Shown here in pieces: positions 1,145 through 42,450 of a stretch of DNA of 64,000 bases. The stretch is from assembly GCA_021234155.1 (NCBI GenBank), contig JAJEKV010000054.1:2327574-2391573 (forward strand), given 5' to 3'. The translations under genes and the position numbers were made by a program. The first letter of the stretch is position 1. Every line of letters begins with the position of its first letter. This stretch comes from Isoetes taiwanensis. Taxonomy: Eukaryota; Streptophyta; Lycopodiopsida; Isoetales; Isoetaceae. The notes beneath the pieces were generated by a model that saw only the letters and a list, made by a program, of their open reading frames with translations, ran no database searches and was not told the origin of the DNA.

Positions 1145-2014
1145 CTACATCAGGACTCCACCGGTGGCAATCTTACTGGCATCCGTGGCCACGAGTTTAT
1201 CCTTTTCAGGATCGGGCAACGTGAGAACTGGGGCTGACGTTAAGGCATCTTTAAGCTGCTGGAAACTTCCCTGAACTTTTGCCTTCCAGTGGTCCATCCA
1301 ATCCTTCACTTTCTCATGCTTTGTAAGATTTGTAAGAGGTGCTGCGATCTTTGCAAAATCCTTTACAAATTTCTGATAATATCCTGCTAGTCCTAAGAAA
1401 CTTCGGACCTCGGAAACATTTCCGGGAATAGGCCATTCCCTTACGGCCTCTATCTTTGCTGGATCTGTAGCAATTCCCTCTGCCGAAATGACATGGCCCA
1501 AATAATCGACCTTCGGAGTGGCAAACTTGCACTTAGAGAACTTGGCAAAGAGCTGATGACGTCTTAGCTTCTGCAGGGCCAATCTAAGATGTGCCTCATG
1601 CTCCTGTAGGGTCTAGATGAGAATGTCGTCAAAGAAAATAACAACAAAGTCATGCAAGTATTGTCGGAAGACATCGTTCATCAATCGCATGAAAGTTGCT
1701 GGGGCATTAGTTAATCCAAAAGGCATAACTGTAAACTCATAATGCCCATATCTAGTGCGAAAAGCAGATTTATGGATGTCCTCCTCTTTAATCCTTATCT
1801 GATGGTACCCGGAGCGTAGATCAATCTTTGAGAAATACTTAGCCCCTTGCAATTGATCCATTAGATCATCGGCTCTAGGCAAAGCATAGCGATTCTTGAT
1901 GGTATGCTTGTTGAGTTGCCGATAATCAATACACATCCTCAAGGAGCCATCCTTTTCTTATGAAAAGAATAGGAGCACCAAAAGCGAAACACTAGGGCCG
2001 AATGAAACCTAGGT
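1145..2014 (-). pseudogene. pol: E1 reverse transcriptase
   Basis: Copies element RNA into DNA. Motifs in order on the minus strand: [55 protein letters not shown], and the catalytic FFDDILI (about 1616-1636), followed by [37 protein letters not shown] and the RNase H lead [15 protein letters not shown]. Breaks: a one-base frameshift just before MCIDY (about 1956), TAG at 1613-1615 where the family usually has Tyr, and TAG at 1145-1147 at a conserved Gln. Apart from these the frame is continuous with RNase H and integrase. Confidence 0.9.
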
Positions 2015-3020: not shown

Positions 3021-4030
3021 CTAGCGGCCATAAGAGTTCTGCTGAGAGGGCCCCGGACTTGGTGAGCGGGGTTTATAAGGTGTGGACAGCCGTGGCTGCG
3101 AGTAAGGAGCAGGACGTGGATACTGGTTCTTTGGTGTGTCCTCCTCGAGGCTCAATGCTTTAGCCTCAGCCTCCGCAACTGATTTCAGGTCTATGGCCTT
3201 AACCATTCGTTTAATTGATGGGGCCAACCCTTCAATGTAACCCTCCACCGCCCTCTTCTCATTCATACCTGGTACATACAGCCTCAGGCGCATAAATTCA
3301 TCAGTGTAAGCCTGAACCGACATACCCTTTTGCTCTAACCTATAGAAGGTCTGAATTTGTTGGCATTTGTGCGCACGAGGCACATAATGCGACTTAAAAG
3401 CTTTCGCAAACTTCTTGAACTTGCATCTGCTTCTATCCAGATGCTTGGCTCTAGCATAGCCCTTCCACCAAATACGGGCAGCTCCTGTAAGGTTCGTGGT
3501 GGCAACCTTTCCTGTATCCTTTTCTGTCATGCCATAGGACTTCCCAAACTCCTTCATTTCGTCCAACCAGGACTCTGCATTCAGTCCGCCTCTAGATTTC
3601 CCATCAAACTGGGCCAGTTTCCTATTCTTACATATACTAGTTATGGCTGTATCAACCGTCTTGCGGTATTCCTTATCCCGGCGCTTTGCATGGTCACCAG
3701 CTGATACCGACGACTCAGAAGACACAGAGGTGGCTGATTGTGAGGAGGTGGCTCTATCCCTAGAGGAACTCCGACGACGTTTAGCGTGGGGCCTCCTCTG
3801 TGCAGGTACAGGGCTGGTTTCAGGTGGGGACGGCTGCTGTGTAGGTGGACTTGGCGGTGGCGGAGGTAACTCCGGTCCGTCTTCTTGTATGTGCTGGGGT
3901 GGATTGGCATGTAACACATACGCTTGCAACTCGCCTAATTGCCTCTTCATTAGCATAAGTTCCTGTTTAGGTGTTAGTCTGATGGCATTTGAGGGCGTCT
4001 GCCAAGCGGCGTTGCGTGCACCGTCTATAT
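3021..4030 (-). CDS. gag: E1 gag (capsid) polyprotein region
   Basis: The open frame reaches back to ATG 4220, but its first ~65 codons look like untranslated or intronic sequence; similarity to E2 and E3 begins around 4020 at KQELMLMKRQLGELQAY. A possible splice acceptor lies at 4025-4026 (TGGATATAG on the minus strand) paired with a donor at 4260. Next come a Pro-rich stretch, an Arg/Ser-rich stretch (AKRRRSSSRDRA) and the retrotransposon gag domain: ESWLDEMKEFGKSYGM, ARIWWKGYARA, FKSHYVPRAHKC, VQAYTDEFMRLRLYVPGM, VEGYIEGL. This is the capsid that packages element RNA in the cytoplasm. The frame ends in TAG at 3021, beyond which coding similarity continues in the same frame, so the stop may be a mutation. 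Confidence 0.85.
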
Positions 4031-4298
4031 CCAGCATACAAAAGGTATAAGCCGACTTATGGTGACATAAGGTCTCACAACAATGCCATTTTGGATCAGT
4101 TAGAGAAAGAATACAAGAAAAAGTACAATGGCAAAGATCCTTATTACAGGTGAAAACAGTCATTCTATTATAGTTCGGTACAGTGATAGCAACACAAGTT
4201 GATACAAAGATATGATACAAGGACAGACATTATACATTGGAGATTTAAAGTTCAACTCACCTATAACCTCACAAGACACAAAACAAAAGAGACTGGGC

Positions 4299-4980: not shown

Positions 4981-6381
4981 TTAAGAGCTAGGTCCTGCCT
5001 CTTCATTCGTAGACCGAGGAGGTGGTGGCGGCGGTCGGTGTCGTAGCAGAGTCACCCCTGGGTCTACTGTGGCAGCCGCAATGGAAGCAACCTCTGGCGG
5101 ATAAGTAACAGCCAATGGGGCTGCCGTAAGGAGCTTCATGCTCATCCAGGGTGCAATGTCTTGCCCCAAGGCCGTCAGGGCAAGATCCCGTCGTACGAGT
5201 ACATAAGTGAACGTACGATAGGGAAGCTTCTTGTGCCCGGCCAATGTGGAGAGAGCACGGAGGGTCCACCAAGAAGCTTCGGCCTCCGACCCTAAGTCTC
5301 GGGCTATAAAAAGAACTTGCCCCTGCCGAAAAGCTGATAGGAAGAAACAAGTAAGGTGGTTTCCTAATACCTTCCCTTGCGGAGTCTCTGACGTGGCCAC
5401 CTCCTTGTCTATGTCCATAGGGACCTCTTCTTCCTTGAGTTCTTGCTGCTCTTCCTTCAGATGAACAGGATTATGGTATAGATCCTCTCCCTCCTCATCA
5501 GAATCGGAGGGAACCTCGACCATATTAATGTTTGGAACATGAGATCCCATAGCCGTAAAGGCGTCCGGTGAAGGCTGAGAGGGCGGGTCCTGCATCACTA
5601 GTTCCCGAAGCCGTAGCAAAGTTTCTGCTGGCTCTAGGGTCTCCTGGTGGAATTGGAGTACCTGCTGCACCTCAGGGGGAAGCTCAATAGGAGCGAAGTC
5701 GATGAAATCATCCATACAGTACTCCGCTAGCTCATAGAGCACATGGTCCTTACGCCGGTGCTTGAACCCGGCCACCATGTGATAGGTCCAGATGATGTCA
5801 TCCAAGAGAATATATTCTTGCCCTTGGTGATACACGACTGTTAGGGCGTCTAACCCTGACAAGCGTGCAGCTTGCTCCCGGCGTGGTGGCATCTCCTCTG
5901 CCAACTGCTTCCAGCGGGCGAAGTCCCCCATGCCTATATGCTCATCTTCTCCCTCCTCGAAAGATTCAGGAAGTTTGCCTTTCTCTGCCGGCAAAGTCTC
6001 ATCCTCAACATATTGATCCATGAGGATGGCTAGGGCGAAGGCGACTTCAAGATATTGTCGCCCCTGATGTTGTACAACGGGCAGGTGCTTGCCCCATCTG
6101 AGCTTTCCTTTCAGCACATTATACGCGTGGGTATCACCCCCTAACATATCCCAGACCACCTCCCGTTCTAGGTACAACTGGGGAGGATCCCCAAGAGGAA
6201 TACACAAAGGAAGCATCTCCTCTGTGTAAAACTCTAGGAATCCGGCATAGTCTGGGTGTCACTGCATATTGGTGATGAGATCAAGGCGCTGACATAGCAA
6301 GGGCCGCAACAGGTCGAAGGGCACTTGCGGATCCCAATGCTCTCCGTCTTGATACCATGCAAGAAGGTCGGTGGCTGCCAT
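4981..6381 (-). pseudogene. E1 ORF2: unknown 466-codon protein, shared by E1, E2 and E3
   Basis: Starting at ATG 6381 the frame runs to a stop at 4981 with one in-frame TGA at codon 41 (6259-6261); the longest unbroken part begins at codon 56. I do not recognise a family. Visible parts: a hydrophobic and aromatic N-terminal region (MAATDLLAWYQ, DYAGFLEFYTEEM), a middle segment with DALTVVYHQGQEYILLDDII and ELAEYCMDDFIDF, an acidic segment (SDSDEEGED), then a conserved module (GQVLFIARDL, LRALSTLAGHKK, TYVLVRRDLAL) and a proline-rich tail. The C-terminal module aligns with FMLIALSGFGRHA of E2 and E3, so the gene belongs to the element rather than to a single capture event. Function unknown. 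Confidence 0.8.
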
Positions 6382-6579: not shown

Positions 6580-7842
6580 CTAAGGATGCTCCCCCCCAAT
6601 CCTGCGGGCGATGGCTAAATCCTTAGGCATGATGGTGAGCCTCTTTGCGTGGATTGCGCAAAGATTGGCATCACCAAAAAGTGCCACTAGATAGGCCTCC
6701 GCAGCCTCTTGGAGTGCCAAAATGGCAAAAGTCTGGAAGCGGAGGTCAGTCTTGAACTCCTGGGCAATCTCCCGAACCAACCTCTAAAAGGGGAGCTTCT
6801 GTATCAGAAGTTGGGTCGACTTCTGAAACTTACGGATCTCCCGTAAGGCGACAGTGTTGGGTCGGTACCGATGGGGTTTCCTCTGTGGAGCAGGGTTGGG
6901 ACGCGGCCCCCTTTGTGCAGGTACAGTCTTGGCCCCAACAACTGGTCGGGACGCATCCACCCGCTCCTGCCTCCGATTGGAGCTCACGTTCTTCCCGAAA
7001 GCCCCGACATTCCTCAATTTTTCCTTGTATTGGCTGCCGGCCTTTCGGGCGACGGACTTCCTCTGGTGCTTCACCGTCGTGTGCTCTGTTGGTGTTGGGC
7101 CCTGCCCACTCCCGGATGCCCCTTCCCCTTGCGGGTTCGACTGGTCTTGCCGATCCTTCTCCTCCTTCTCCCGTTCTATCCTCTCCTGCTCTTCCCGGAA
7201 CTCTCGGGCTCTCCTAAGGTCTTCTTCAACCTGAGCATAATGTTGTGCTACACTGCGGCGAAGAAGTTCAGCGTGGTACCGGTTGGGCCGCTGGGCTATG
7301 TCAATCTGGATCGTCGTTAAGTAATCCAGACTGATATCAGGAATCGGGGCTCCCCACATGAAGCTCTGCGAAGCTTCATGCCATTGGTACGGGGGAAGTT
7401 CGATAGCCCGGCCATCAATAACGGCGACTCCATCCCCAAGGTACCGGTACTCCCTTCCTCGAGCCGCTGTATCGGCTCGCTCTATCTCCCTTTTGTCATC
7501 CTCCCTGGCCAAGTTTCTGATACGGTCGGCCTCATCCCTTATGTCCTCCTCCTCGGTGTGGCCTTCACATTCGGGAGGATAAAACTTTATTAACATCATG
7601 ACCAAGTCAGGTTGCTCGGCCATGGTGTAAGGAAGCTGGCGGAGGTTCAGTCGGACCAAGAACGGCTCCGAGAAATGATAGATTGGATAGGGGATCCTAT
7701 CGTTGTTATCAAATCTGTTGACCAACTCGTCTAGAAGTATGTCAATCAAAGCAGGGTCGGTAGCCATATTCCGAGCGATCAAAGCGTAGATCTGGGCTAT
7801 AGTAAGGGTAGTGGGGTCCGGAGCACTCTTGGTGTTGGCCAT
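6580..7842 (-). pseudogene. E1 ORF1: retrotransposon-borne protein with C-terminal histone H3 domain
   Basis: 420 sense codons plus stop from ATG at 7842, broken only by an in-frame TAG at codon 353 (6784-6786). Residues 1-187 are unrecognised; 188-235 form a charged, probably coiled-coil stretch ([14 protein letters not shown]); 236-254 are a Gly/Ser/Pro linker; 255-321 are basic and Pro-rich. Residues 322-420 are a histone H3 fold starting [20 protein letters not shown], co-linear with H3 residues 37-135 with no insertion or deletion. By hand alignment about 79 of 99 positions match canonical plant H3. The H3-H3 dimer residues equivalent to Cys110, His113, Arg116 and Asp123 are kept. The H3 N-terminal tail is absent, replaced by the 321-residue extension. 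The TAG falls at the position of Gln68 of H3, consistent with one C-to-T change. Expected to enter chromatin if made; that role is inference. Confidence 0.88.
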
Positions 7843-8100: not shown

Positions 8101-8125
8101 CGGCAGAAATACGCGGGACATACGG

Positions 8126-8610: not shown

Positions 8611-8622
8611 GCTCTGATACCA
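8611..8622 (-). other. E1 primer binding site (initiator tRNA-Met)
   Basis: The minus strand reads TGGTATCAGAGC, the standard complement of the 3' end of plant initiator tRNA-Met, separated from the LTR end by one base. Confidence 0.92.
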
Positions 8623-8623
8623 C

Positions 8624-10180
8624 TGTGACGCTCCCTGAATATATACGACCCCCGGTCGTATACATACGGGGACTTTCCCCTCCCAGGGCGACCATCTCGC
8701 CATGAGCAGGGCCCTCCGTCTGACCCAGGCCATCTACGTAGAGATGCTCGAGTGAAGGGCACGGAGGTGTCATTTGGCCCACGCCTTCGATGGGCTCCTA
8801 CGTCGCGGAAGCATGAATACAAGGGTTAGCACACAGCATAATATATATATAAATAACCACCACAAAGGGTGGCGCATCCATCCAAATACCAACGGCAAAG
8901 AATATGCATCTAAAACTAAGAAAACACCCCAAACCTCAGGGTCTACCCCGGCTCAGACTCCAGTGAGGATCGACTGACGAATAGCATAGAACATCGGCTA
9001 GGGTTGTCCACTCCATCCGCCCCTCCTGTGCACACTTTGCAGATGGGTCGATTCACGCTATGGCTTCGCTATAGCCTTCCGGAGACGCAGACTCAAGGTA
9101 TCACCCTTTTGAGCCTACTCCAGGGTTCATGACGCCCCGGTCCGATGAGGCAGGTCAAGGAAGTGTCCCCTTCCAGGATCACAGTGGTTCCATGGGTGAG
9201 CTAGAGGATACGTGCCGCATCAGTGACCCCCGCATCCGTACCCAACTTACTCACCCTAAATCTACTCAAAGTGCAAGATGCTCCATACGGATCACACCTC
9301 TACACCCAGGGAGTGTCAGACCCATACCCGGCCCTCTCCGTGACCGGCTATCAGGCCTAGCCCACTATAGGAGTCTCAGGAGCCTTTTATGTTCGTGCAA
9401 GACCCCACCCCCACTTCGCCACTGTGTCCCTTCTCTGGTGCTAAGCCAGACCATAGCATCTACGACCCGGTGGTCTCTTGTACACAGGCCGCATATAACG
9501 GGAATATTACGGGGCTCTATCTAGGAGCATACAGAGGTCTCTACCTCCCCTTTAAACCCCCGTTTAATGGAAGCTACCCAAATACTTCATAGATACATCA
9601 ATCATTCCTTAACAGAGTACCATTCATAATGAAATGTAATCCTACTTACCACAGAAGGGTTAATTGCAACAAAGGCAACAAGCAAAGAGTACTACAGTAC
9701 TATCTTACAAATCACAAGCTAAACTACTACTAACCCGTGTTTCGGCTAGAACCGTTATCGTGGGGTGCTTCCATAGTGCTACAAGTAGGGTGGCAGCAAC
9801 AGCTAGTGGTGGTTCAGTGATTTTGGTGAAGTCTGCAACAGTCCTTGGGCGCTCAGCTGCTCCTTGGGCGCTCAGCTGGTTCGATATTGGTTGATATGGG
9901 GGTGATGATCCACCTTAATGGATCCAATTAGTAATCACCATGCTGGCCAATCGAGTTTGGCCAGGAGGCGCTTTCTTAAACTATAATTAGCTTAATTGTC
10001 CTTCTTACTTATTAATTTCCTTAAACATAGGTTATTATCCTTAATGATTTAATTAACATAGCTAATGAAATCCCTTTTAGGTCAACCCCCTAGGTTACCA
10101 TACCCCATGGTGGCGTATCTATACTGGGTGACGTGTCAGTATATTTATACATATACCGTATAAATACTTGGAACGTCACA
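8624..10180 (-). repeat. E1 5' LTR (1557 bp)
   Basis: Bounded by the family's inverted ends: TGTGACG at 8624-8630 and CGTCACA at 10174-10180 on the plus strand. The tRNA primer site lies one base inside the 3' boundary. Palindromes sit near both ends: at 8641-8663 (arms GTATACGACC and GGTCGTATAT on the minus strand) and about 10136-10170. The LTR continues directly into integrase codons of E0, so the right boundary is exact. Confidence 0.9.
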
Positions 10181-11494
10181 GATTCTCCACGACATCCACA
10201 ACAGTCCAATAGCTGGCCACGCAGGATTTATGAAGACATATTTCAAAGTGCACAGCAGTTATTATTGGTTAGGGATGAAGAAGCAGATAGCTCGCTACAT
10301 CAAAGAGTGCCAGCTGTGTCAGCAGACGAAGGCAGAGCAGCTTCGAATTCTAGGGGCATTGGAACCATTAGGGTGCCGAACGCTAAGTGGGAAGTCATCA
10401 GCATGGACTTCATAACAGGGCTCCCGATGACAGCAAGAGGAAAAGATGCCCTGATGGTTGTGGTCGACAAGCTGTCGAAGATGGCACACTTTGTGCCGTG
10501 CAGGACCACCGACACAGCTTTGGATACAACGGCTCTCTTCACCAAGGAAATCTTCAGGCTCCATGGCATGCCGAGAGAGATCATCTCCGACAGAGACCCG
10601 TTCATGAGCGCCTTTTGGCAGGATCGTTTTGCGACGATCCAGATGAAGCTGTCCATGAGCACGGTCTATCATCCTCAGACGGATGGGCAAACAGAACGGA
10701 CCAACAGAATTTTGGAAGATATGCTAAGAAACTATGTCTGGAACAAGCAGAGTAAGTGGGAAGATTACATTCACTTGGTTGAGTTCGCTTATAATAGCAC
10801 CAAGCAGGAATCATCCCAGATGTCGCCGTTCATGATCAACTACGGTTAACAATGTCTAACTCCAGACACTTGGCACAATCCTGTGTCAAAGGTAGAGGTT
10901 TCGCAGCAAATGTTGGCCGACATGCAGCAGCTGGTAGAAGAGGTCCGAGGGTATCTTCTTGCAGCAAGGAGTCGACAAAAAAGCATCGCCGACAAGCACC
11001 GGACGGTCAAAGAGTTCCAGGTTGGTGACAATGTCTGGCTCAAGATCAAAGTGAAGCAGGCAAAGCTCCGCATCGGAAATTGTAAGAAATTTGCTCCAAG
11101 GTGTGCTGGCCCTTTCAGAATAGAAAAGAGAGTAGGTAACCAATCCTACAAGTTAGAGCTGCCAGCACACCTGAAAATTCATAAAGTCTTCCACGTGAGT
11201 TTGTTGAAGAAGCATACTCCAAACCCAGAAGAAGTCTTGGACACGGCAACGTTGTTGGAAATGATAGAAGAGCAGCTAGAGATAGTCCCAAATTTGATCC
11301 TTGATAAGGCCATCAAGAAGACAAGGAGATCAGAGTTTCTCCAATATTTGGTCAAGTGGAAACACTTGCCGGTGGAAGACGCGACATGGGTACTTAAGAA
11401 GGACCTGATAAGGCAGTACCCGCAGTTCATGGAGCAATGGGACGGCAAGGTCATCTCCGAAGTAATCGGCTCAGGCATGTCGATTTATGTTTAG
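10181..11494 (+). pseudogene. pol: E0 integrase with C-terminal chromodomain
   Basis: Zinc module (NSPIAGHAGFMKTYF, CQLCQQTKAEQ), catalytic core (MDFITGLP, IISDRDPFMSAFW with one residue missing after DRDP, TDGQTERTNR), then a GPF-type C-terminal domain (GPFRIEKRVGNQSYKLELP, LKIHKVFHVSLLKKH) and a chromodomain at about 11325-11440 (LQYLVKWKHLPVEDATWVLK, ending YPQFMEQWDGKVI). Chromodomains of chromoviruses bind modified histone H3 and direct integration. Breaks: a frameshift near 10370 and TAA at 10847-10849. Truncated 5' by the E1 insertion. Confidence 0.9.
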
Positions 11495-30644: not shown

Positions 30645-30779
30645 TGTGGCGTTCTAGCATAATATACAGTATGAATACATATATTATACTGCCACGTCAC
30701 TCGTACATGTCGCCTTAACGACATGTACTTGGAAACCATAAAGAGTTGAACCCTAGGGGGCAACACCTTATGTTGCACA
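30645..30779 (+). repeat. E3 5' LTR, first 135 bp
   Basis: Starts TGTGGCG, contains the terminal palindrome (TAATATACAGTAT with ATACATATATTA) and CCCTAGGGGGCAAC, and ends in GCACA, which is duplicated on the far side of E2 (44116-44120). Confidence 0.85.
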
Positions 30780-32441
30780 TGTGACGTTCCAGGACAGTAT
30801 ACGGTCCCAGGACGTATACTGTACTGCCTCGTCATGCGTACACGCCACTCCGACTGACGTGTACGCTAACGTGTAGCCAGGTGGGTAGCCCTAGGGGGCA
30901 ACGTGCTAGGAATATGTGCAACTATTAATGTGCACATTTTCCAATGTACACATTAATGTGGGCACACATTTCCATGTGGACACTTGATGCCAAGTGGGCC
31001 ACACCCATAGGTGCAATTAATGTGCACATTTTCCAATGTACACATTAATGTGGGCACACATTTCCATGTGGGCACATTTTGCCACCTAGCCATTAAAGAC
31101 AAGTGGGCCCATTACCAATTATCCCACATGCCTAAAGGGGATAATTGGAAACCCTAGCCAACCCCTTGTCTATTAAGGGGGGAAACCCTAACTTGCCCAA
31201 TTTTTCGTTTCTAGGGTTTTGGAACTCTGTTTTGGCAGCCTCAACAGACCAAAACCGCCTCCCGAACTTTGCTGAGAGAATTGCAGATTAGTTTCCCTTG
31301 ATTCGGCGTTTTGCCGGGGATGGTCGAGCTCGGTGAGGAGGAGCCACTCAAGGATCAGGTATTTGGCCAATTAGATAGTCTAAACCCTAATTCAGTCCAT
31401 AGAATCGTAGGTTTAGCCTATTAAATTGCCCATAGCGACCTTCTAGATCTCTAGATACCAGCCTCTAACTAAAGAACCTAACTCTATGATGTAGATTAGA
31501 TATAGTTCTTTAGTTCTTACATGATGATATATGGATAATGTATCTCTATGAACTCCTTGTATCGGGAAGGGGGTAGAGACCTAAAAGCTTGGTAGTAGAT
31601 GCTCCTAGAGTAGCCTCTCTAGCACACTATAGATTCGACACATGTGTACAAGAACCACACTCGGTTGTGGGTGAAGGGGCAGGCTGGCTAAGAAGGAGGT
31701 TCATGTCGACTCTTGAGCGATCCCTCGGTGTGTAAGGCCTACCAGGGATCATTGTGACTGGGTCTAATGGCTCACCACTGAGTGCGGGTGAGGCATGGAC
31801 TCGACACCCGTGAAGTGGTGTACACTTTCCAGTGGGTTCAGTCGAATACGGGCAGTGGCCCTCTAGTCACCTTGAGTCGGCATGTAGATCTCGGAGGGAG
31901 TGATCCCTTCCTGCCCCATCGGGCCGAGAGGATGAAACCCAGGGAATAGCCCTTTTGGCTATGCCTCCCGTGGCTTCTGATCAGGTCCCAGAGCACTTTT
32001 CAGCCTACTCACGCAAAGTGTGCCTGAGGAGGGGCGGATGGAGTGGACAACCCTATGCCATGTTCATATGCCAGCCAAATCCATTGCCATGAATTCTGTC
32101 CGCAAGGAACTCTGGAGACCCAAGCCGTCAGTCATTCCCTTGAGTCTGAGCCCTGGGTAGAACTCCCCATATGTATTGTGCTCACCTTGTTATGCAGATG
32201 TGATGGACCACCCTTGAGGTGGATATGTGCTTATGTTATAACGACATGTATGTTTACGCTTCGCGACTAGGTAGGCCACGAGGGAGGCGGGGTAAAATGA
32301 CCCCTTCACTCTTCCCACTGGAACCAGTCACGGTTGCAGTGTTATGTGGAGGGCCCTGTATCGGCATGGAGCTGGTATGGGGGATGAACTCCTGTTTGTA
32401 TCACGGTGAGTGCACCGTATCACGAGTAGGGGGGCGTCCGC
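30780..32441 (+). repeat. E2 5' LTR (~1.66 kb)
   Basis: Starts TGTGACGTTCC. The 3' end is altered (GGCGTCCGC where the 3' LTR has GACGTCACA). Contains a ~110 bp internal duplication (AATGTGCACATTTTCCAATG type) at 30925-31080 that is also in the 3' LTR and in E4. Confidence 0.88.
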
Positions 32442-32443
32442 GG

Positions 32444-32454
32444 TGGTATCGAGC
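32444..32454 (+). other. E2 primer binding site, one base missing
   Basis: TGGTATCGAGC instead of TGGTATCAGAGC: the CAG has become CG, in line with the CAG/CTG distortion seen elsewhere in E2. Confidence 0.75.
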
Positions 32455-32646
32455 AATGTTCTTGGAGACCAAGAGCAAAAGCACTGGCCATGTTCCCAGT
32501 AGTACTAACTTGATAGGATCCTTAAACCTCGAAAAATGGGAAAATTTTTTCTCATTCTTTTAGTTTTGCTAAGCTAGTAACAGTTAAAATGAATGAAAAC
32601 ATAAAAAGATTAAGAATTGGTGAGCCAACATCCGAAAGGTAGGGTG

Positions 32647-32916
32647 GTCTCTGCGTCGCGCCGGAGACGAGAAAATGAGATTTTCATTTTTAATTTTGGT
32701 ATAGCGTCAATGAGACATTCAACTTAAACACACCAAAAAGTTGTAAATTACAGTAAAATAGCTTGATAATTCTAAATTAGAGCTAAGAATCAGTAGAATT
32801 AGCATGTTACATGTTTAAAAAGTACAAAATTTAGTAGTGGGTCCCACCATGTCTCACACGTCGTGCGCGGATGAGGGAAATGACTTTTTCATTTTGGGGG
32901 GCATAACGTAATGAAC
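32647..32916 (+). promoter_or_regulatory. Hairpin pair upstream of E2 ORF1
   Basis: Two imperfect palindromes at 32647-32716 and 32851-32916, 204 bp apart, each opening GTCTC and centred on AAAATGA(G/C)-TTTTCATTTT. They are diverged relatives of the perfect pair upstream of ORF2 (34489-34754). Confidence 0.6.
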
Positions 32917-32990
32917 TTGCTTAAATAGGTGTTTTAGATGTTTTAAGCACCCCAAAAGGTAGTTTAAAAAGTTGACCTAAAATTGACACC

Positions 32991-32998
32991 TATAAATA
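32991..32998 (+). promoter_or_regulatory. TATA-like box upstream of E2 ORF1
   Basis: TATAAATA in the context CACCTATAAATAGACC, ~100 bp before the first ATG (33098 or 33101), followed by pyrimidine-rich CCTCCCATTTTCGCTCTTCC. The position parallels the TATA-like box of E1. Suggests an internal promoter; not tested. Confidence 0.45.
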
Positions 32999-33100
32999 GA
33001 CCTAGACCCCTCCCATTTTCGCTCTTCCTTAGAAGTTTGCTGCGCGTGTTCATAGAGGCGATCTTCCGGGCGCTTAGCTCCGTCGGCGAACCATCAAATG

Positions 33101-34342
33101 ATGGCCTTCACTTCAGGACTGCAAGGAAGCCTAGCCAAGAGCGGATCCTCAGCGCCCGTGATTCTGGCCTCTTCGGAGGGTCCTTCAAAACGCCTTTTTT
33201 AGAAGGCGAATCTTCTTGGCGAAGATGCGAGGATCAGATCGGGCGACCATCACGGAGATCATAGAGGACGGCCGTGGGACATCATGCATCAAATCCTCGA
33301 GGAGATCGCACGGGGAGGAAGGAAGGAGCGAGGAGCAAGAGGAAGCGGCGAGGGATCAAGCGGCCGAAGAGCAACACCGGGTGAGACCCACCTCACGGGG
33401 GAGGAGCAAGGAAGGGAAGAGCAAAGAACCGCCAACTCTTAGCCCCAGAAGAAGCAGATATTGCGCGCTTCATCGAAAGTATGAAGCCAAAGAGCGCCCG
33501 GGAGCAGAGGACGAAATCCGGAGGACGCGACCCAACCAGCACCCGGCCGAGCCAAAGAAGAGGAAGGCCAAAGCTATCAAAGCGTGCAAGAGAAAGGTTG
33601 TGAAGGTCGGAAGCTGAAGCGGTAGGGCCCGGCCATCAACGAACCATCAGGCGAAGAGACCCGCCTTCTACCGACGATTCGACGAGGATTACGCCCCCCA
33701 ACGCAGGGGCGAAGTTCTTCAAAACCCCACTGCGGAGAAGGAAGTCCCCGAAAGCAGGTGGCGAGGAACAAGACCAGTCGGGCAAAGAAGCCCCACCTTT
33801 TTCCGACGTGGGATAGGGTTAAAGCCCCGCGACCACAAAGGGAGGCGTACGTGATAGACCCGGTCAAGGTCTATCAGAAGAGGATCAGAGAGCATAACAC
33901 TTACATGGAGAAGTGGGAGGCATACAATGCCTATTATTAGGAGCACAGGGTGAGAATGATTGAAGGCGGACACCCGACAAGAAGCGAGACCTTGAAGCCG
34001 CCGCCACCCAGGCCCAAGCCTCCAAGAGCACCAGGGAAGAAGCGGTCCAACAGGAAAAAGTTGGAGGACAGAGCCCTCAAGGAGATCCGGCATTTCCAGA
34101 AGAGTTACGGACTCTTGATCCCCCGGGCACCGTTCCAACGCTTGGTCCGCGAAGTCATGCAGGAGTACAACACAGACATGCGCGTGACATATGAGATGCT
34201 GTTGTGCTTGCAGGAGGCAGCAGAAGCAAAAATAGTGCAGCATTTTGAGGATTCGACGGCCTGCACAGTGCACGCGAAGAGGGTCACCCTCATGAGGCAA
34301 GATATGTATCTTGCTAGGCACATCAAGGGAGAGCGCCCTTGA
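33101..34342 (+). pseudogene. E2 ORF1: protein with C-terminal H3-like domain showing centromeric-H3 residues
   Basis: The start is uncertain because the first ~650 bp change frame several times. From 33758 the frame is open to the stop at 34340-34342 except for TAG at 33938-33940. A Pro/Lys/Arg-rich segment ([20 protein letters not shown]) precedes the histone fold, whose 89 residues from [10 protein letters not shown] to ARHIKGERP align with H3 residues 47-135 without indels; about 50 of 89 match canonical H3 by hand. [18 protein letters not shown] and RVTLMRQD resemble plant centromeric H3 (CENH3) rather than canonical H3, but the loop-1 insertion usual in CENH3 is absent. The residues at H3 Cys110, His113, Arg116 and Asp123 are kept. 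Same place in the element as E1 ORF1, so they are orthologous. Confidence 0.8.
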
Positions 34343-34488
34343 AACCTTTTTGTAAATAAGGAACATTTTTGTTAATATATAAAGAATTTTTGTGTAATTA
34401 ATGTGTCTGATCTAGCTTAATTAAGTTGTTAGAGAATTCTAGTCTTTATTTTGGTTAAATTGGAAGCTTTTGAGCAAATTGAGACGAT

Positions 34489-34555
34489 GTCTCACACATC
34501 GCGCCAGGACAGAAAATGAGATTCTCATTTTCGGGCTGGGCGCAACGTGTGAGAC
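34489..34555 (+). other. Long hairpin A between E2 ORF1 and ORF2
   Basis: A 67 nt near-perfect palindrome: GTCTCACACATCGCGCC... pairs with ...GGGCGCAACGTGTGAGAC around AAAATGAGATTCTCATTTT. Arms ~33 nt with a few mismatches. Confidence 0.88.
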
Positions 34556-34687
34556 CATGCCCAAAAATGCCCAAAACAGCTCCAAATCGACCAAATAAGG
34601 GGTCAATTCTGCCTAACTCGACGCGTTTAGTGGAATTTCAGCCTTAGATCATCCAAATTGATTAAGTTTAGCCCATTTAGAACCCAT

Positions 34688-34754
34688 GTCTCACACGTCG
34701 CGCCAGGACAGAAAATGAACTTTTCATTATCGGTCTGGGCGCAACGTGTGAGAC
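34688..34754 (+). other. Long hairpin B between E2 ORF1 and ORF2
   Basis: Second copy of the 67 nt palindrome, 199 bp after copy A (GTCTCACACGTCGCGCC... with ...GGGCGCAACGTGTGAGAC). Confidence 0.88.
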
Positions 34755-35056
34755 CTCGTACCATTTTCTTCACCAAATGATCTCCAAGTTGTTACAATAG
34801 GTTCATTACTTGTTCTTAGCATGTTCAAACCCTAGAAGTAGTCTTCAAACTCGCAATTGCACCCTTTAATAGATCAGAATCACCTAATCTCAGTAAATTC
34901 TAGGTCATCCAAAAATTAGGGTTTCCCCCTTTTCTAAAAATAAGTCCCCCATTTCTCATTTAGCACCCTGCAAGTTTGCTCTCCACTGCTTAGGCGATCT
35001 TCCAGCTCCTTGAGGCGCTTCTGCATCCGTCTGTTACTCCCTTCTTCGCTAGATCA

Positions 35057-36611
35057 ATGGCCACTGCTGACTTCAGGATGATGGATGTAGCCGGTGCCCA
35101 TCTTTGCCGAGGCGGATGTCGACGACATCTTCCAAGTCTTTGGGAAAGAAATTGATATCCAAGCCACGCTAAATGCAACCCCAGCATATAGGCAAGTGCT
35201 AGCAGAGTTTCAAGCTAGGGTAGGACCCTCCCTTGTTCAGGTTCCCCCTTGCTTAGGATATTTTAGTTCCCGGCCATCCCTTCAAGCGGCCTTGACATGA
35301 TGTCCCCAACATCGCCAAGTACCTAACTAACAAGGCACAAAGGCAGCCCGAGACTACATGGTCACGACGACCAAACGGAACCAAGTATTTCTCTTACACG
35401 CCGCCCCTAGCTATGTTCTTAACCCATAGCGCGAAAACCCATTGGGGCAACCTCTATCCCTCTTGGATGGAGGTGGACCCCATAGCAGCTCAAGCGTAAG
35501 AGCGGATGCTTTTGCTTTCTTTATCAGCGAGAACAAGAAGAAAGAGAAGAAGAAGAGGAGTTCGGACGGCGAGGAGTACAGTCTTCGGAGCTCAACTCGC
35601 ATTTAAGAACGGGCGCCAAGCCGGGCAGGAGCTGATCAACTTCGAAGCGTTTAGCGGCTAAATATAGGAGAACATCGAGTTGCTCCCCCCACTTGGGCTA
35701 GGCATCACAAGCCTAGCCCTTATCATCATCAACGAGAGGAGTATCTACTCCTCGCGCGACATCCGAGAACCTTCCGAATGCGAGGAGAGGGAGCTCAGGT
35801 GGACGAACTGCTCCACCAACTGCGGGCTGGCAATGTAAGGCCCCCCGACATGGACGACTTCATTGTCAGGGAGTCTTAGACTTCCCACTTCAAGTCGTGG
35901 GGAAGCCTACATCTACACGAGGGAAGCGACTTCCGACATCGGGCATACTGAAAGGCATAAGGCAAGTCATGGGCGGAGACACGCCATCAAGAAGAAGAGT
36001 TCCTCGCCATTCAGGAACGGATGGGGATCAGAGGCAAGACCACTAGCATCCTGATGCCGAGTCCCTCAACACCACCTCCAACAAGAGGAGCAGGAATTGA
36101 CCTCAGGAGAGTCGACTCCACAATTGAAGATTACCGGGAGCTCACCGAGATCGAGGTCGACGACATGCCCGGGGGCATAGAGCGGGGGTCAAACAAGTGG
36201 GGAATCATCCGCGGACGCACAACGGCAGTCGCCTGAGGTACTACCCGCCCTTTGTTGCTAGATGGGAGAATAGCGGTAGTACACCGCAAATTCAGCCCCA
36301 GGGGCGAGGAAGGAGTGTTCATGCTGATTGCACTCTCAGGCTTCGGCAGGCATGCAAATGTCGACTATGCTGTCCTAGTCAAGAGGGCAATGGCACTCGA
36401 TCTCTTCGACTTCGCCATACCCCATCGACGGCAGGCGAGATTAGCCCGGCCGCATGGCCCTCACATCCGCCAGCGGGTGGAGGACTTGGCGAGAGCCTTG
36501 CAGGGCGGCTCGTCAGCAAGCGTCTTCAGGAACTTGGGTCATTCAGTAGGAACGGCCCAAGTTAAGAAGTTCCTTGAGGACAACCCATCTTACCGCCGAT
36601 TCCAAGACTAG
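35057..36611 (+). pseudogene. E2 ORF2: unknown protein, homologue of E1 ORF2
   Basis: The ATG at 35057 follows a leader that resembles the ORF1 leader (both contain AAGTTTGCT and GGCGATCTTCC). A frameshift near 35095 leads into EIDIQATLNATPAYRQVLAE, alignable with the E1 N-terminus, followed by several breaks. The middle part (GLGITSLALIIINERSIY; DELLHQLRAG, MDDFIV) corresponds to E1 DALTVVYHQGQEYILLDD and MDDFIDF. The C-terminus is open from 36252: IAVVHRKFSPRGEE, FMLIALSGFGRHA, AVLVKRAMALDLFDFAIP, RQRVEDLARALQGG, VKKFLEDNPSYRRFQD, longer than in E1. Function unknown. Confidence 0.72.
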
Positions 36612-36890
36612 TTAGACTCTTGATCCCGGAGACTTTTTGTACTAAAATATTATATAATATATGAATATAATCTCTGTTGCACTTTAAATGTTTTGTTGAT
36701 GTAATTTTGCCCCACAACTATACCAACAAACATAAACAATGCAAGAGAACAAGGAAAACTAACCATATAGCCATGAATTACTTGTGTATGCAGTTAGAGG
36801 CCTAGGCTCAGGGGAACGACAACGCCAAGACTTTAGGGAAGAAACAGACCCCTTGAGACCACCCCGGCAAGGAACCTATTTGAAGATATG
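36612..36890 (+). other. Spacer between E2 ORF2 and gag
   Basis: AT-rich, no ORF. Matches 46794-46940 of E3 in several blocks (GATATAAT/ATTTTG, CATCAACAA), so it is part of the element. Confidence 0.5.
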
Positions 36891-38030
36891 GAACCCATGA
36901 CCCGAGGAGGAGGAGATATCCCGATGATGAGGGCGGACCTTGAGCGGATAAAGGCTCATTAGCCAGACAAGCGGATGAGCGGGCCGGTGGGCAATGCTCA
37001 ACTGCCACAAGCATCAGCTCGGAAAACAGGAAGGGACAAGAAGAGGAGCAAGAGAAGAAGATCCCCCAGCTCGGACTCCTCCGACTCAAGCTCAGAGTCA
37101 GACTCCGACTCCGAGGAAGAAGAAGATCAGGCCCAGGACCGAACAGACGCAAGGCAAAGGAACTTTGAAGAGGGAAGGCGGAGGAACACCCCCGGATGGG
37201 ATCTACAAAGGGACACTGGGGCCTCGACTACGGAAGAAGGTAGATTCGCGTTGGGCAATGTATGGAAGGCGGAATCGAAACAGTTCTCGGGGAAACAGGT
37301 CAGGATTAGAAGCGAGAGGCATGGCTGGGCCCGAAATGAGTGAGTACGGCAATGCTTATGGCATGAAGGATAAAGACAAAGGAAGAGTGGCAACGTGGCG
37401 AACTTGAAAGGAGCCATTTCGGATTTGGTGGAAGGGTTATGCAAAGGCACATGGCTTTAGCGTGGATGCTTGTAAGTTGAAAGTTTGCTAAAGCCTTCAA
37501 AAGCGCCATTACGTCGAGGAACATAAGTCTAGTATGATGCAAATAGAGTTCTGAGGTTCGCGGCAAGGCAACAAATCTGTCGAAGTATCTGGGAATTCAT
37601 GAGGCTGAGGTTGTATATGCCAAAATTGGGTGAGAAGCATGCAATGAGAAAGCTATATTGAGGGCTGAATGAGGAGATCCATAAGCTTGTGAGGGCAATA
37701 AACCCTAAGGCGATGTCGGAAGCGAGTCCAAGGCTATAAGCTTGCAAGGGGCGGGACCTGAGAATGGCAGGCGGAGGCGCCGGCATTTCGGGGACAAAGG
37801 CAAGGCGGCGAGAAGCTATAGCCCTAGAGCGGCGGCCAGTCCAGGTCCGGCTAGAGCCCCATATGGTGGCAACGGGAAGCGGCAGGAGAAAAGCGGTGTC
37901 CTTCAAGGACAAGCGAGGGGGTCAAACTACTCCAAAGCGGTGCGATCCTTTTTGCGGCGATGCCCAAGGAAAAGGCGGGAGTGCATAAGCGGCTCTGCAA
38001 AAGGTGCTTCCAACCCAGGCCATAGGGACG
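36891..38030 (+). pseudogene. gag: E2 gag region
   Basis: Ser/Arg-rich segment (KKRSKRRRSPSSDSSDSSSE), then decayed gag blocks: KQFSGKQVR, EYGNAYGMKDKDKGRVA, RIWWKGYAKAHGFSVDACK, FMRLRLYMPK-like sequence near 37600, and a Cys cluster near 37985 (KRLCKRCFQP) that stands for the zinc knuckle. At least five frameshifts. Order and content match E1 gag; E1 ARIWWKGYARA is the best anchor. Confidence 0.75.
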
Positions 38031-38099
38031 GTGGCGCCCCTCGTCATGAGTGCAGCCCTAGCGGAGTTGGGAGATTGGGACACTCTGTCGGCGGCGGCG

Positions 38100-38560
38100 G
38101 GAAGCCCGCGACTACATTGGGGGTGAGTGTCATATCTTTGCCGCAATAGATCTGAGCAAAAGCGAGAGCCCGGTATAAAGTAATTTCCACAGTAGGGAAG
38201 GCCAAGGCCAAGTCCTTCATAGTCTTGATAGACTCGGGAAGTAGCCATAATTTTGCATCCCCCAGAATGGTTCAAATGTTGAAGTTGAAACCACTAAAGT
38301 CAAAGCCAAGGCCTGTTGTCTTAGCAAGTGGTGCAGTAAGGCAGATGGCAGGCAAGAGAATTAACTTCGACATCGACTTGCCAGGGATTAAGATCCAGAT
38401 GGGGAGCAGAAGTAATGGGCATTGGCAAGTACGACCTGATCATAGGAATGGAGTACCTTGGACCAGCAGGGGCCATTATCGATTGTGGAAGCGGAAGGTG
38501 ACCTTCCCAACACCGGACGGCAAGATCATCGAGATCAGGTAAAAAAGTTGTTCCCATCAT
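38100..38560 (+). pseudogene. pol: E2 aspartic protease
   Basis: Processing protease of the polyprotein. Active site FIVLIDSGSSHNFASPRM (DSG) at about 38217-38270, followed by LKLKPLKSKPRPVVLASGAV and KRINFDIDLPGIKIQMG. A frameshift near 38400 separates the C-terminal flap (YDLIIGMEYLGPAGAIIDC type), readable in another frame. Confidence 0.82.
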
Positions 38561-40014
38561 GCGGTGCATGTCTTCTAGGCGGTGTTTCAAGTGCATCAAG
38601 GCGGCGGGTGGCATACATCTTCAAGCTTGAAATTGATGAGCGAATCGGGAGGAAAGCAAAGAAGGCGGGGTGCTCAAGCAAGTTGCCGAAGCAAATAGCT
38701 CGGTGATCACGGAATTCCATGATCTCTTTCGGATGAGATCAAGCGGCTTCCTCCTTATAGGGGAGTCGAGTGTGAGATAGCACTTTCGAGGCGGGAGCAA
38801 AGCCGACAAGCAAGGCTCCATACGGAATGGCGGGGAGTTTGTGGGGTGAAGAAGCAATTGCGGGGAGTTGCTCGACCTAGGCTTCATTAGACCTAGTGTC
38901 TCGCCATTTGGAGTGCCCATTCTCTTTGTAAATAAGAAGGATGGCAGTTTAAGGATGTGCATAGACTATAGGCAGTTGAACAAGCACACCATTAAGAACA
39001 AGTATCGCTCCCCGGATCGGATGACTTGATGGATCAACTCCAAGGTGCAAAGGTCTTCTCCAAAATCGACTTAAGGTCGGGGTTATCATCGGATCAGGAT
39101 AAAGGAAGAAGATATCCATAAGACCGCCTTGAGCGGTATGGGCATTATGAGTTCACGGTAATGCCTTTCGCTTATCGAATGCCCCCATGACGTTCATGAG
39201 GCTCATGAGCGACATCTTGAGGGAGTTTTAGACACCTTTGTGATTGTATTCTTTGATGATATTTTGGTGTATAGCAGATCCCTTGAAGAGCACGTACAAC
39301 ACTTAAGAAGAGTGCTAGAGAAGTTGAAGAGGCACCGGTTGTACACCAAGTTGTCGAAGTGTCGCCATAGCGGAGAAAGGTGGAATACCGGGTCATGTGA
39401 CCTCGTGAGAAGGAATCTCGGCGGATCCGCCAAGATTGAAGCCGTCATTCGGTGGCGGTGCGAAGAATGTGCATGAAGTCGAAGTTTTTTCGGCCTAGCG
39501 GTACTACTGAGGAAGTTCGTGAAGAACTTTGCTAAGATAGCAGCCCGGGTTAACAGACTTGGCCGAGGGCGGGAGAAAGTGAAAGATTAGGCAGAGCATT
39601 GGCACAAGAAAGCCCAGCGGGGTTTGAATTATTGAAGGAAGCTTTAACAACCGCCCGAAGTCTTAACCTGCCGGACCGGAGAAAGATAAGCTTGTAGCAA
39701 CGGGCCCCGAGTAAAGATAGCTACAGTGCGGTGCTCATGCAAGAAGAGCGTGTGGTAGCGTATGATTCAGGAAGATGAGCGATGCGAAACGCAGCTACCC
39801 ACCCACGATCGGGAATTGCTTGCGGTTGTGGGGCATTAAGAATTTGGAGGCACTATCTTTTGGGAAGGAAGTTCGGTTGGATACGAGACCATCGAGCCTC
39901 CGGTATGTATTCACGCAACCACACCTCAACCGAGGCGAGAGAAGATGGATGGAGTTCCTTGAAGAGTATGACTTTGATATAGTCTACAAGCGGGGAAGCT
40001 CAATGTGGTAGCGG
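38561..40014 (+). pseudogene. pol: E2 reverse transcriptase and RNase H
   Basis: RT blocks in shifting frames: [20 protein letters not shown] (about 38905-38970), [39 protein letters not shown] (about 39235-39290, catalytic FFDD), then RNase H blocks MSDAKRSYPPT-type, HYLLGRKFGW and GERRWMEFLEEYDFDIVYKR. Frame breaks occur about every 100-150 bp, many beside places where relatives have CAG or CTG. Confidence 0.82.
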
Positions 40015-41580
40015 ATGCGCTTTCAAGGCATCCCACGACAACTAGAGTGCATTGCAATGCAATTTCGGCGCTCTCCGGCTGACTTTGGTAAGAAGATTGA
40101 AGAATCCTTGCCAGCGGATGTGGATTTCAAGGAAGTATGGGCAAGCCTCTCTAGGGAGGCTAGAGAACGGATAAGGAGGCGGGAAGTCTTTAAGCATTAT
40201 AGGAAGAAAGGCAACCTGTTATACCATAAGAACAAGTTGTGCGTACCCGAATCAGCAGGTGTAAGGAAATTGATCCTCCATGACATACTGCAGCCCAATA
40301 GCTGGCCATGCGGGATTCATGAAAACATATTTCAAAGTCTTGCGCGGCTATTATTATTGGCGGGAATGAAGAAGCAAGTAGCTCGCTACATCGGAGAATG
40401 CCGGTTATGTCAGACGTGGCGAAGCAGCGACTCAATTCGGGAGCATTAGAGCCATTAGCGGTGCCAAGCGCTAAGTGGGAGGTGATTAGCATGGATTTCA
40501 TCACAGGACTCCCAAGGACCGTAAGAGGGAAAGATGCTTTGATGGTAGTAGTCGACAAGTTGTCGAAAATGGCACATTTTGTGCCTTGCGGGACCACGAT
40601 CTGGCTATGGATACAGTGAAGCTCTTCACCAAAGAGATCTTCGGGCTTCATGGCATGCCAAGGGAGATTATCTCCGGCGGGGATCCGAAGTTCATGAGTG
40701 CCTTACGGCAAGACCTCTTTCTGACGATTGAGACGAAGCTATCCATGAGCCGCGACATATCATCCTCGGGCGGATGGCCAAGCGGAGGCGGACCAACAGG
40801 ATTTTAGAGGACATGCTCTGAAACTATATGCGGAATAAGCAAGGTATGTGGGAAGAATTCATTCACTTGGTGGAGTATGCATACAATAGCACCAAGCAGG
40901 AATCATCCCAAATGTCGCCGTTTATGATCAATTACAGCTATCAGTGCCTAACTCCGGATACTTGGCACAACCAGGTGTCAAAAGTAGAGGTTTCGCGGCC
41001 AGATGTTGGCCGATATCGGCGGCTTCGTGGAAGAAGTTCGAGGGTATTTGCTAGCAGCAAGAAGTCGACGAAGAGCATCGCCGACAAGCATCGAACGATA
41101 AGAGAGTTCAAAGTTGGAGATGATGTTTGGCTCAAGATCAAGGTGAAGCGGTGGCTTCGAATCGGGAATTGCAAGAAGCTTGCTCCAAGGTGGTTTGGAC
41201 CTTTCGGAATAGTCAAGAGAGTAGGTAATCAATCCTACAAGCTAGACTTGCCAAGACACCTAAAGATTCATAGGGTCTTCCACGTGAGTTTGTTGAAGAA
41301 GCACACTCCAAATCGGGCGAAGTCTTGGACTCTCAACGTTGTTGGAAATGGCGGAGGAGCGGTGGAAATAGTTCGAAATTGATTCTTGATAAAGCTTTCA
41401 AGAAAAGCGAGGAGATCGAGAATTCCTCAAGTATTTAGTCAAGTGGAAACACTTACCGGTGGAAGACGACATGGGTACTTAAGAAAGATTTAGTAAAGCG
41501 GTACCCACGGTTTATGGAGCAATGGGACGGCAAGGTCATCTCAGAAGAAATCGGCTCGGGCATGTCGATTTGTGTAGATT
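40015..41580 (+). pseudogene. pol: E2 integrase with chromodomain
   Basis: Zinc module near 40300-40430 (GIHENIFQ, ARYIGECRLCQT), catalytic core (SMDFITGLPRTVRGKDALMV; HGMPREIISGGDPKF where relatives have SDRDPKF; the third acidic block corrupted near 40760), GPF-type domain (GPFGIVKRVGNQSYKLDLP, HRVFHVSLLKKH), and a chromodomain at about 41425-41540 (KYLVKWKHLP, then a frameshift before WVLKKDLVK). The distortion of the catalytic block coincides with lost CAG sites. Confidence 0.85.
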
Positions 41581-42450
41581 AATTCTATGTATAGTTAAGA
41601 TTAATCACGCGATGCAACCTATGCTAGGTATGGGTCGCATGCGTTGTGACCGATGATGAGACCACTACGGTGATCTCTAGGGCGTGGTGTAATGTCAATG
41701 TAGGCATGACCCGCGTTTCCGCTTGGCGAAAGTGGAAGGTAGATTAGAAAGTCTACTTGTCCCCACGGAGTAGGCGACCTCGAAGAAAGGAGGTCATGAA
41801 GGAATGCATTGATAGGGAAAGCACCTCTAGCCCCATATATGCTTTGATAGGAGGAATCAGGCCTTCCGCCCCATATATCTGGGGAAGGACCTATCCTCCA
41901 CTTATTTGGCAACTAGGGTGTAGGCATGGCGGCATATAGGCATATAGGGCTGTCTCCCGGCCATAATGGAAGATTCACCCTCTTCCCTGTAGGGAGATTA
42001 GCCATGCATCCATGTAGATAGGTGGGGTGGTCACCATATAACCAAAATCTTATTAATAATTAAAATGGTACTAACGTAGTGTCGACACATGAGGCCAATA
42101 GAGCTCAGGGAGGGCAAGGGGTCGAGCTCGAAGACTTGCAACACAAATTTTGTTGGAATGTGTTGCAAGGAATGAAGAGTACCTCGGACGTTAATCTTAA
42201 TTTTGATAAACTTAATTGTCATGTTAAGTGAATTATTGAGCAACCTGTTTTAATGATGTTATGAATTGATAAGTTAATTCATAATATAATGGCGTGATAA
42301 TATCCTAAAAATATTACCTTAAGGTAATCTTAATAAATGTGTAAGTATTATAGTAGTTATAGTATGCATCAGGTTGATTGCAGGTTAGGATGATCCCAAG
42401 GTGGGGAGACCCACGATGCTGCGGACAACATCATTTCAAGGTGGGGAGAA
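41581..42450 (+). other. E2 3' UTR and polypurine tract
   Basis: Non-coding. Conserved hairpin 2 at 42135-42169 and a degraded hairpin 1 near 41752-41770. Polypurine tract TTTCAAGGTGGGGAGAA at 42434-42450 directly before the LTR. Confidence 0.8.

What the first reader, a model, noticed from the sequence alone, without database searches (positions are those of the whole stretch)
6580..7842. Histone H3 globular domain fused to a retrotransposon protein (E1 ORF1)
Seen: a 420-codon frame between 5' LTR and gag ends in 99 residues co-linear with H3 37-135, about 79 of 99 identical by hand alignment, including [20 protein letters not shown] and CAIHAK. The normal H3 tail is replaced by a 321-residue extension. 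Known: chromovirus integrases carry chromodomains that bind H3 tails. Inference: the element could place its own tailless H3 in nucleosomes, for example to avoid tail-based silencing marks or to mark sites for integration. I know of no described plant LTR element with this gene.
Basis: partly seen in the sequence, partly recalled or inferred. Interest (0 to 1): 0.93.

Follow-up and report, generated by a model that had tools for sequence, protein, structure and literature searches.

The report
Retrotransposons carrying their own histone H3
A group of jumping genes in a plant-lineage genome carries its own copy of histone H3, one of the proteins that package DNA, with a long extra front part, and keeps the H3 part almost unchanged, which suggests that these elements put a home-made histone to use.

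Summary
E1 lies on the minus strand (7842-6580); this copy has an in-frame stop (6784-6786), so it is open for 352 codons and the H3 fold continues 67 codons beyond. It is no local insertion: the window's own 1.66-Gb genome holds at least 115 E1 places (capped list), and 14 of 20 fetched copies are fully open. A second LTR element in the window (30779-44107) carries a diverged H3 at the same place, from a family of at least 150 places; its five best-preserved copies start MARTKQT(A/T)RK, the H3 tail tip. Between copies the H3 part is under extreme purifying selection: dN/dS 0.056 and 0.014; on internal branches 49 and 53 synonymous but no nonsynonymous changes. So H3 is a maintained gene of a Ty3-type retrotransposon group, the first ORF after the primer site, followed by an unknown ORF (E2), gag and pol. 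Best reading: an N-terminally extended H3 variant that pairs with host H4 and acts in chromatin, probably against silencing; this function is inferred, not shown. Closest precedents: an H3-like gene in a fungal hAT DNA transposon, and single viral histones.

The parts
6580..7842 (-). E1: N-terminally extended histone H3 gene, first ORF of the element; 352 open codons, an in-frame stop, then 67 more codons of H3
   Evidence: at least 115 places in the same genome, this one included
6583..6879 (-). H3 globular part of E1 (H3 residues 37-135)
   Evidence: 80 of 99 identical to plant H3.3; Pfam PF00125
6784..6786 (-). in-frame TAG inside the H3 part of this copy (decay)
   Evidence: a stop at this codon in 1 of 20 other fetched copies (L030)
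8611..8622 (-). TGGTATCAGAGC, initiator-Met tRNA-type primer binding site (type recalled)
   Evidence: the same 12-mer in 17 of 20 fetched copies, 610-653 bases into the fetched piece
8623..8769 (-). end of the 5' LTR next to the primer site; outer LTR border not determined
   Evidence: 149-base 97% match (8621-8769) to a place left of the window
4981..6216 (-). E2: second ORF of unknown function between E1 and gag (411 codons here, 466 in 3 of 20 fetched copies)
   Evidence: at least 101 places in the genome; no Pfam match
3021..4220 (-). gag
   Evidence: PF03732 and PF19259 matches
1145..1942 (-). reverse transcriptase and start of RNase H (pol), two open pieces
   Evidence: PF00078 and PF17919; pol continues left of the window
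30779..44107 (+). second LTR element (family F2) with the same plan; decayed copy
   Evidence: LTR pair 93.2% identical over 1,686 aligned bases
30779..32432 (+). 5' LTR of the F2 element
32444..32454 (+). TGGTATCGAGC, decayed primer site of the F2 element
   Evidence: sequence printed; intact 12-mer in L053 and L054
33941..34339 (+). C-terminal open part of the F2 histone H3 gene (histone fold at its end)
37054..37724 (+). gag remnant of the F2 element
   Evidence: tblastn
38712..39849 (+). reverse transcriptase region of the F2 element
40828..41430 (+). integrase C-terminus of the F2 element, with frame-shifted remains of a chromodomain after it
42450..44107 (+). 3' LTR of the F2 element
10883..11491 (+). 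integrase C-terminus with a readable chromodomain, fragment of an F2-related element (10181-11743 is 80.6% identical to 40272-41826)
   Evidence: PF00385 E 1.2e-09; self-alignment

Best explanation
A group of Ty3-type LTR retrotransposons in this streptophyte took up a histone H3 gene and keeps it as the first reading frame after the primer site, ahead of E2, gag and pol (shown by sequence). It encodes an H3 variant with about 320 residues in front of the fold in both families: in E1 the normal tail is gone, in F2 the tail tip ARTKQTARK stands at the very N-terminus (shown). The fold is held almost invariant by selection in the replicating lineages of each family (shown for the copies sampled). 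Inferred: the protein pairs with host H4, is deposited in nucleosomes on the element's own DNA or at its target, and carries the extension there. The most likely gain is escape from silencing, because these nucleosomes lack most of the tail residues that host silencing modifies.
For: 14 of 20 fetched E1 copies fully open. Same position in both families: primer site, H3 ORF, E2, gag, pol. Selection: dN/dS 0.056 in the E1 H3 part and 0.130 in its extension (19 copies); 0.014 in the F2 fold (19 of 20 loci); 0.088, 0.274 and 0.023 by transversions only; shifted-frame controls 1.62 and 1.87. Internal branches: 49 syn / 0 nonsyn (E1 H3) and 53 / 0 (F2 fold); terminal branches 142 / 44 and 57 / 13. 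E1 (L028) differs from the host's H3.3-like gene at 12 of 99 sites with no indel. The tail tip, or a decayed form of it, was found in 14 of 20 F2 loci.
Against: No expression, protein, chromatin or silencing data exist here. E1 and F2 folds are only 53 of 96 identical although the RT core of the two elements is 85% identical over 88 residues, so the fold is not equally constrained between families. F2 has changed several positions that contact DNA in ordinary H3 (R63, K64, F84, Q85; contact roles recalled), which may weaken a standard nucleosome. The linkers of E1 and F2 show no homology (hhalign probability 0.3). F2 keeps K4 and K9, which does not fit a simple mark-free reading. Copies were ranked by similarity to the query and, for E1, mostly chosen without stops, which biases dN/dS downward; the tree-based count is less exposed but uses the same copies, simple parsimony, midpoint rooting and only 399 bases for F2.
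Confidence: 0.55

Rival explanations
1. Targeting or tether: the element H3 is placed in nucleosomes, or binds histone chaperones, to give the integrase an address; the extension or the chromodomain of the integrase recognises it.
For: An F2-related fragment has a chromodomain at the integrase end. In it two of the three cage residues of HP1 are not aromatic (my reading; HP1 cage recalled), so it looks like group II, whose mechanism a 2025 review calls yet to be elucidated (PMC12786077, passages read).
Against: No chromodomain was seen on the E1 copy, and those on the F2 copies at hand are decayed. No integration-site data.
Confidence: 0.15
2. Packaging: the H3 protein with its basic and coiled parts condenses the element's cDNA or RNA inside the virus-like particle or pre-integration complex, and does not enter host chromatin.
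For: First ORF after the primer site; basic stretches in the F2 linker; long helices in the E1 extension in a model of mean pLDDT 50.
Against: A mere DNA condenser need not keep the H3 fold invariant on internal branches. H3 normally needs H4 (recalled), and I saw no H4 gene in the E1 element: the E2 and 110-codon ORFs have no Pfam match.
Confidence: 0.15
3. Decoy: the protein soaks up host H3 chaperones or tail-modifying enzymes and so weakens silencing without entering nucleosomes.
For: F2 keeps the tip ARTKQTARK with K4 and K9; fold surfaces for chaperones could explain constraint on the fold.
Against: E1 has no such tip beyond A-N-T-K, so a tail decoy cannot be the shared function.
Confidence: 0.1
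4. Passenger: a host H3 gene was carried along by transduction and amplified without function.
For: Transposons do amplify host fragments (PMC3538342, passages read).
Against: 0 nonsynonymous against 49 and 53 synonymous internal changes in the fold; same position in two diverged families; frames open in 14 of 20 copies.
Confidence: 0.02

Closest known systems
H3L gene of a hAT DNA transposon family in Pyrenophora tritici-repentis (PMC3538342; passages read)
   Different: DNA transposon with terminal inverted repeats, very similar copies, no long front extension described in the passages read. Here: LTR retrotransposons, two diverged families, more than two hundred places in capped lists, long extension, measured selection.
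Single viral histones, such as bracovirus H4 with a 38-residue tail extension and single H3-like proteins (review PMC9145170; passages read)
   Same: A parasite's own copy of one core histone, mostly 73-89% identical in the fold, sometimes with a longer N-terminal tail; bracovirus H4 is reported to enter host chromatin. Two late-phycodnavirus MAGs have H3-like proteins with about 170-residue extensions.
   Different: Those are in viruses or polydnaviruses, not retrotransposons. The extension here is about 320 residues, and the F2 fold is far more diverged (53 of 96).
Additional ORFs of plant LTR retrotransposons (reviewed in PMC12786077; passages read; Ogre ORF1 recalled)
   Same: An extra ORF beside gag and pol.
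   Different: No histone is named as such an ORF in the passages read.
CENH3 / CENP-A
   Same: H3 variant with a long, divergent N-terminal part; F2 reads IPRAPF where the Wolffia protein P0009 (CENH3-like by my reading, unnamed by its source) reads VPAAPF.
   Different: No extra residue in loop 1, and E1 (L028) is 87 of 99 identical to the host H3.

Membership tests
Histone H3 | H3-type histone fold | tested here: met
   PF00125 in both E1 pieces, the F2 fold and an F2 full ORF; best solved-structure match for F2 is H3.3, E 5.9e-29
Histone H3 | fold co-linear without indels | tested here: met
   E1 and F2 rows show no gap against plant H3; ungapped comparison with host H3 over 99 and 96 columns
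Histone H3 | canonical N-terminal tail | tested here: not met
   E1: only A-N-T-K at the start; F2: tip ARTKQTARK, then about 310 unrelated residues
Histone H3 | assembles with H4 into nucleosomes | not testable with these tools
   needs biochemistry
CENH3 | longer loop 1 | tested here: not met
   no insertion in E1 or F2 against H3; P0009 has one extra residue
CENH3 | location at centromeres | not tested
   no chromatin data
Ty3-type (Metaviridae) LTR retrotransposon | LTR pair and primer site | tested here: met
   F2: LTR pair 93.2%, primer 12-mer in L053 and L054. E1: primer site in 17 of 20 copies, but its full LTR pair was not determined
Ty3-type (Metaviridae) LTR retrotransposon | order protease - RT - RNase H - integrase | tested here: met
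   F2 copy L053: protease 5629-6558, RT 6781-7284, integrase within 7654-9165; RNase H only seen next to RT in the window element
Chromovirus | chromodomain at the integrase end | tested here: inconclusive
   readable in an F2-related fragment, decayed in F2 copies, not seen in the E1 copy
hAT transposon with H3L | hAT transposase and terminal inverted repeats | tested here: not met
   the elements carry LTR, gag and pol; no hAT match among the proteins scanned

The most novel reading that the evidence does not exclude
A retrotransposon group that makes its own chromatin: it supplies an extended H3 which, with host H4, forms element-specific nucleosomes on its DNA or target sites. These are both shielded from host silencing marks and readable by its own integrase, so the element writes and reads its own chromatin address.
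Probability: 0.12. Interest if true: 0.97.

Novelty: new variant of a known kind. Interest (0 to 1): 0.87.

Why it matters
Hosts silence retrotransposons largely through marks on H3 tails (recalled). A retrotransposon group that brings its own H3 and keeps the fold under selection of a strictness known from real histones would be a direct counter-move in that conflict, with more than two hundred natural copies to compare. It makes testable whether mobile elements can build or label nucleosomes, and it may bear on what group II chromodomains recognise. Transposon-borne H3 was known from a fungal DNA transposon. In the listings of my ten paper searches and the passages I read in three papers I saw no LTR retrotransposon with a histone; three of the searches matched hundreds to thousands of papers of which 10-20 were listed, and the library holds only openly licensed papers.

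Tried and rejected
Rejected: single host-gene insertion; passenger; CENH3 by loop-1 length; programmed readthrough of the stop in the window copy, since 19 of 20 other copies lack a stop at that codon.

Led nowhere: protein databases. The 9 hits of E1 cover 9-20% of the query and all bear the histone domain. For F2 the best 120 of 1,617 hits cover at most 48% of the query, and only the 7,977 candidates sharing most words were scored; the six that I read were proteins with two or more H3 units. Single-sequence structure models of E2 and of the open part of E1 had mean pLDDT 35 and 50, so no fold search was made. Small trees of folds did not resolve whether E1 and F2 H3 share one capture. The leader between primer site and E1 diverges less (0.145) than synonymous sites (about 0.46), so dS may be inflated; the transversion-only ratio was made for this. 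The RT search for relatives without H3 and a search with the 67-residue H3 end of the window copy did not complete.

Full report
What is there. The frame is on the minus strand, 7842 to 6580. It is open for 352 codons, has a TAG at 6784-6786 and continues for 67 codons to the terminal stop. Pfam Histone matches both pieces, E 7.1e-07 and 2.1e-24. Upstream, at 8611-8622, is the 12-mer TGGTATCAGAGC, a primer site of the initiator-Met type (type recalled); the same 12-mer is in 17 of 20 fetched copies. Downstream follow E2 (6216-4981), gag (Pfam) and RT/RNase H (Pfam). The left end is rearranged: in the 6,000 bases left of the window I found, by reading the frames, a second gag-pol piece, and by BLAST a 149-base, 97% match to the LTR end. 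The outer LTR border of this copy was not determined.

A second element with the same plan. BLAST of E1 and of the window against the window found a second H3 fold at 34139-34342 (+), 53% identical, inside another LTR element, 30779-44107, whose LTRs are 93.2% identical over 1,686 aligned bases. The fold again lies between LTR and gag. I call this family F2. Two better copies (L053, L054) show a primer site and a 425-codon stretch without stops that ends in H3. L053 goes on with E2-like pieces, gag (43% over 217 residues), protease, RT and integrase, and decayed chromodomain remains. L054 shows no long open frames of this kind after its H3 ORF. E2 of the two families matches at three co-linear places (E 7.5e-06, 0.014 and 0.018 against a 2.3-kb subject, from different query copies), so the pair H3 ORF plus E2 is probably ancestral.

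Copies. The open part of E1 hits 115 places, the window's own included, the others at 77-94% identity; 80 of 115 have no stop in the matched part. F2's 133 C-terminal residues hit 150 places (the cap; 10,544 candidates), 141 of 150 without stops by my count. A plant H3 query gave 15 intact genes at 97-99% over all 136 residues, and then a gap to 135 places at 71-87%, 46 of them in an open frame of at least 390 codons. Of these 135, 60 lie on an E1 place or next to an E2 place of the capped lists; the other 75 are not tied by them. I read six of the 135 (L058-L063): four are E1-type by sequence; L061 and L063 are other variants whose element context I did not examine. Of 20 fetched E1 copies, taken from the first 31 rows and mostly without stops, 14 are open to the terminal stop. 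The others: stops in L013, L025, L026 and L030, frameshifts in L018 and L027. Is there a family member without H3? Of 101 E2 places, 36 have an E1 hit within 3 kb upstream, 31 have an H3 hit, 53 have either. Of the other 48, where the capped lists are silent, I sampled 3, and all 3 carry the H3 part, one of them damaged. None without H3 was seen; 45 are undetermined.

The tail. Five F2 loci with long open frames begin MARTKQT(A/T)RKP, the tip of the H3 tail with K4 and K9, followed by about 310 unrelated residues and then the fold. The tip, or a decayed form of it, was found in 14 of 20 F2 loci; 6 showed none, the window's own copy (L032) among them. E1 begins M-A-N-T-K, conserved in 19 copies as A 18, N 19, T 17, K 18; it may be a remnant of A-R-T-K. 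K36 of H3 is R in E1 (APQRKPHR against GGVKKPHR; and the host genes). The linkers of E1 and F2 show no homology.

Selection. 19 E1 copies (18 of 20 fetched plus the window; L018 and L027 dropped for frameshifts): dN/dS 0.119 over the ORF, 0.130 in the extension, 0.056 in H3. F2: 0.014 in the 90-codon fold and 0.12 in the 43 codons before it (19 of 20 loci; L041 missed by my filter). With transversions only, to remove decay of methylated C: 0.274 and 0.088 (E1 extension and H3), 0.238 and 0.023 (F2 stretch and fold, 20 loci). E1 in shifted frames gives 1.62 and 1.87; gag 0.13 (10 copies); E2 halves 0.086 and 0.109 (5 and 12 copies). By parsimony on FastTree trees, internal branches carry 49 synonymous and 0 nonsynonymous changes in the E1 H3 part, and 53 and 0 in the F2 fold; terminal branches carry 142 and 44, and 57 and 13. 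The E1 extension has 260 and 104 internal, 430 and 250 terminal. This is the pattern of a gene needed by the replicating lineage and decaying after insertion. Bias: copies were ranked by similarity to the query.

Origin. Three host H3 genes that I read have E at position 77, where the typed plant H3 has D. E1 and F2 also have E, while L059 and L060 have Q. E1 (L028) differs from the host H3.3-like gene L057 at 12 of 99 sites. L061 and L063 are further variants at 86 and 88 of 99. This favours capture from the host's own lineage. Whether E1 and F2 go back to one capture is open. Both end in P (A135P) and share Y54F, but L061 and L063 lack both; the tree support is weak (68, 49); and the RT cores are 85% identical over 88 residues while the folds share 53 of 96. 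Either the fold changed fast between families, or there were two captures, or RT was exchanged by recombination.

Host. A neighbouring gene piece in the window (15028-15495) resembles the C-terminal part of plant PPPDE peptidases, at about 43% to ferns, liverwort and flowering plants alike. I infer a deep-branching streptophyte; the species is not known to me.

How it works. Shown by sequence: position, copy number, open frames, constraint, and the tip in F2. Inferred: pairing with host H4, entry into nucleosomes, and the extension as effector. Escape from silencing is the gain I find most likely, because E1 lacks the modifiable tail. F2's K4 and K9 leave room for a decoy or an address reading. 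DNA-contact roles of single residues are recalled, not tested.

Known things. The fungal hAT element with H3L is the closest precedent for a transposon-borne H3 (PMC3538342, passages). Single viral histones are the closest functional analogues (PMC9145170, passages). In the listings of ten paper searches I saw no LTR retrotransposon with a histone; the library holds only openly licensed papers, and several listings show a small part of the matches.

Noticed in passing
window 4981-6216 (-); L021, L022, L027: E2, a 411-466 codon ORF of unknown function with weak co-linear matches in both element families, dN/dS about 0.1, no Pfam match.
   Followed up: partly
window 4299-4631 (-): A 110-codon ORF between E2 and gag with no Pfam match.
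   Followed up: no
window 14570-15498 (+): Host gene pieces of the PPPDE peptidase (desumoylating isopeptidase-like) family; the C-terminal piece is about 43% identical to land plants of all kinds.
   Followed up: partly
window 59206-60717 and 61101-63727: Two repeat fields: one with a 19-base unit (GCTCAAACATGCCAAGGTG) in 38- and 76-base higher orders, and one with long direct repeats (74%).
   Followed up: no
window 8121-8316: 1.8 copies of a 107-base tandem repeat in the leader between primer site and E1.
   Followed up: no
L015-L031 and window, leader upstream of E1: The untranslated leader diverges less between copies (0.145) than synonymous sites of E1 (about 0.46); leader constraint or hypermutable codons.
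   Followed up: partly
L061, L063: Further diverged H3 variants near host H3 and E1; more than two families are possible, element context not examined.
   Followed up: partly
window RT region against L053: RT core 85% identical between the two families while their H3 folds share 53 of 96 residues; recombination, fast change or two captures.
   Followed up: no
window 19762-21242 (-): Pieces that look like a LINE-type reverse transcriptase C-terminus (by eye, not scanned).
   Followed up: no
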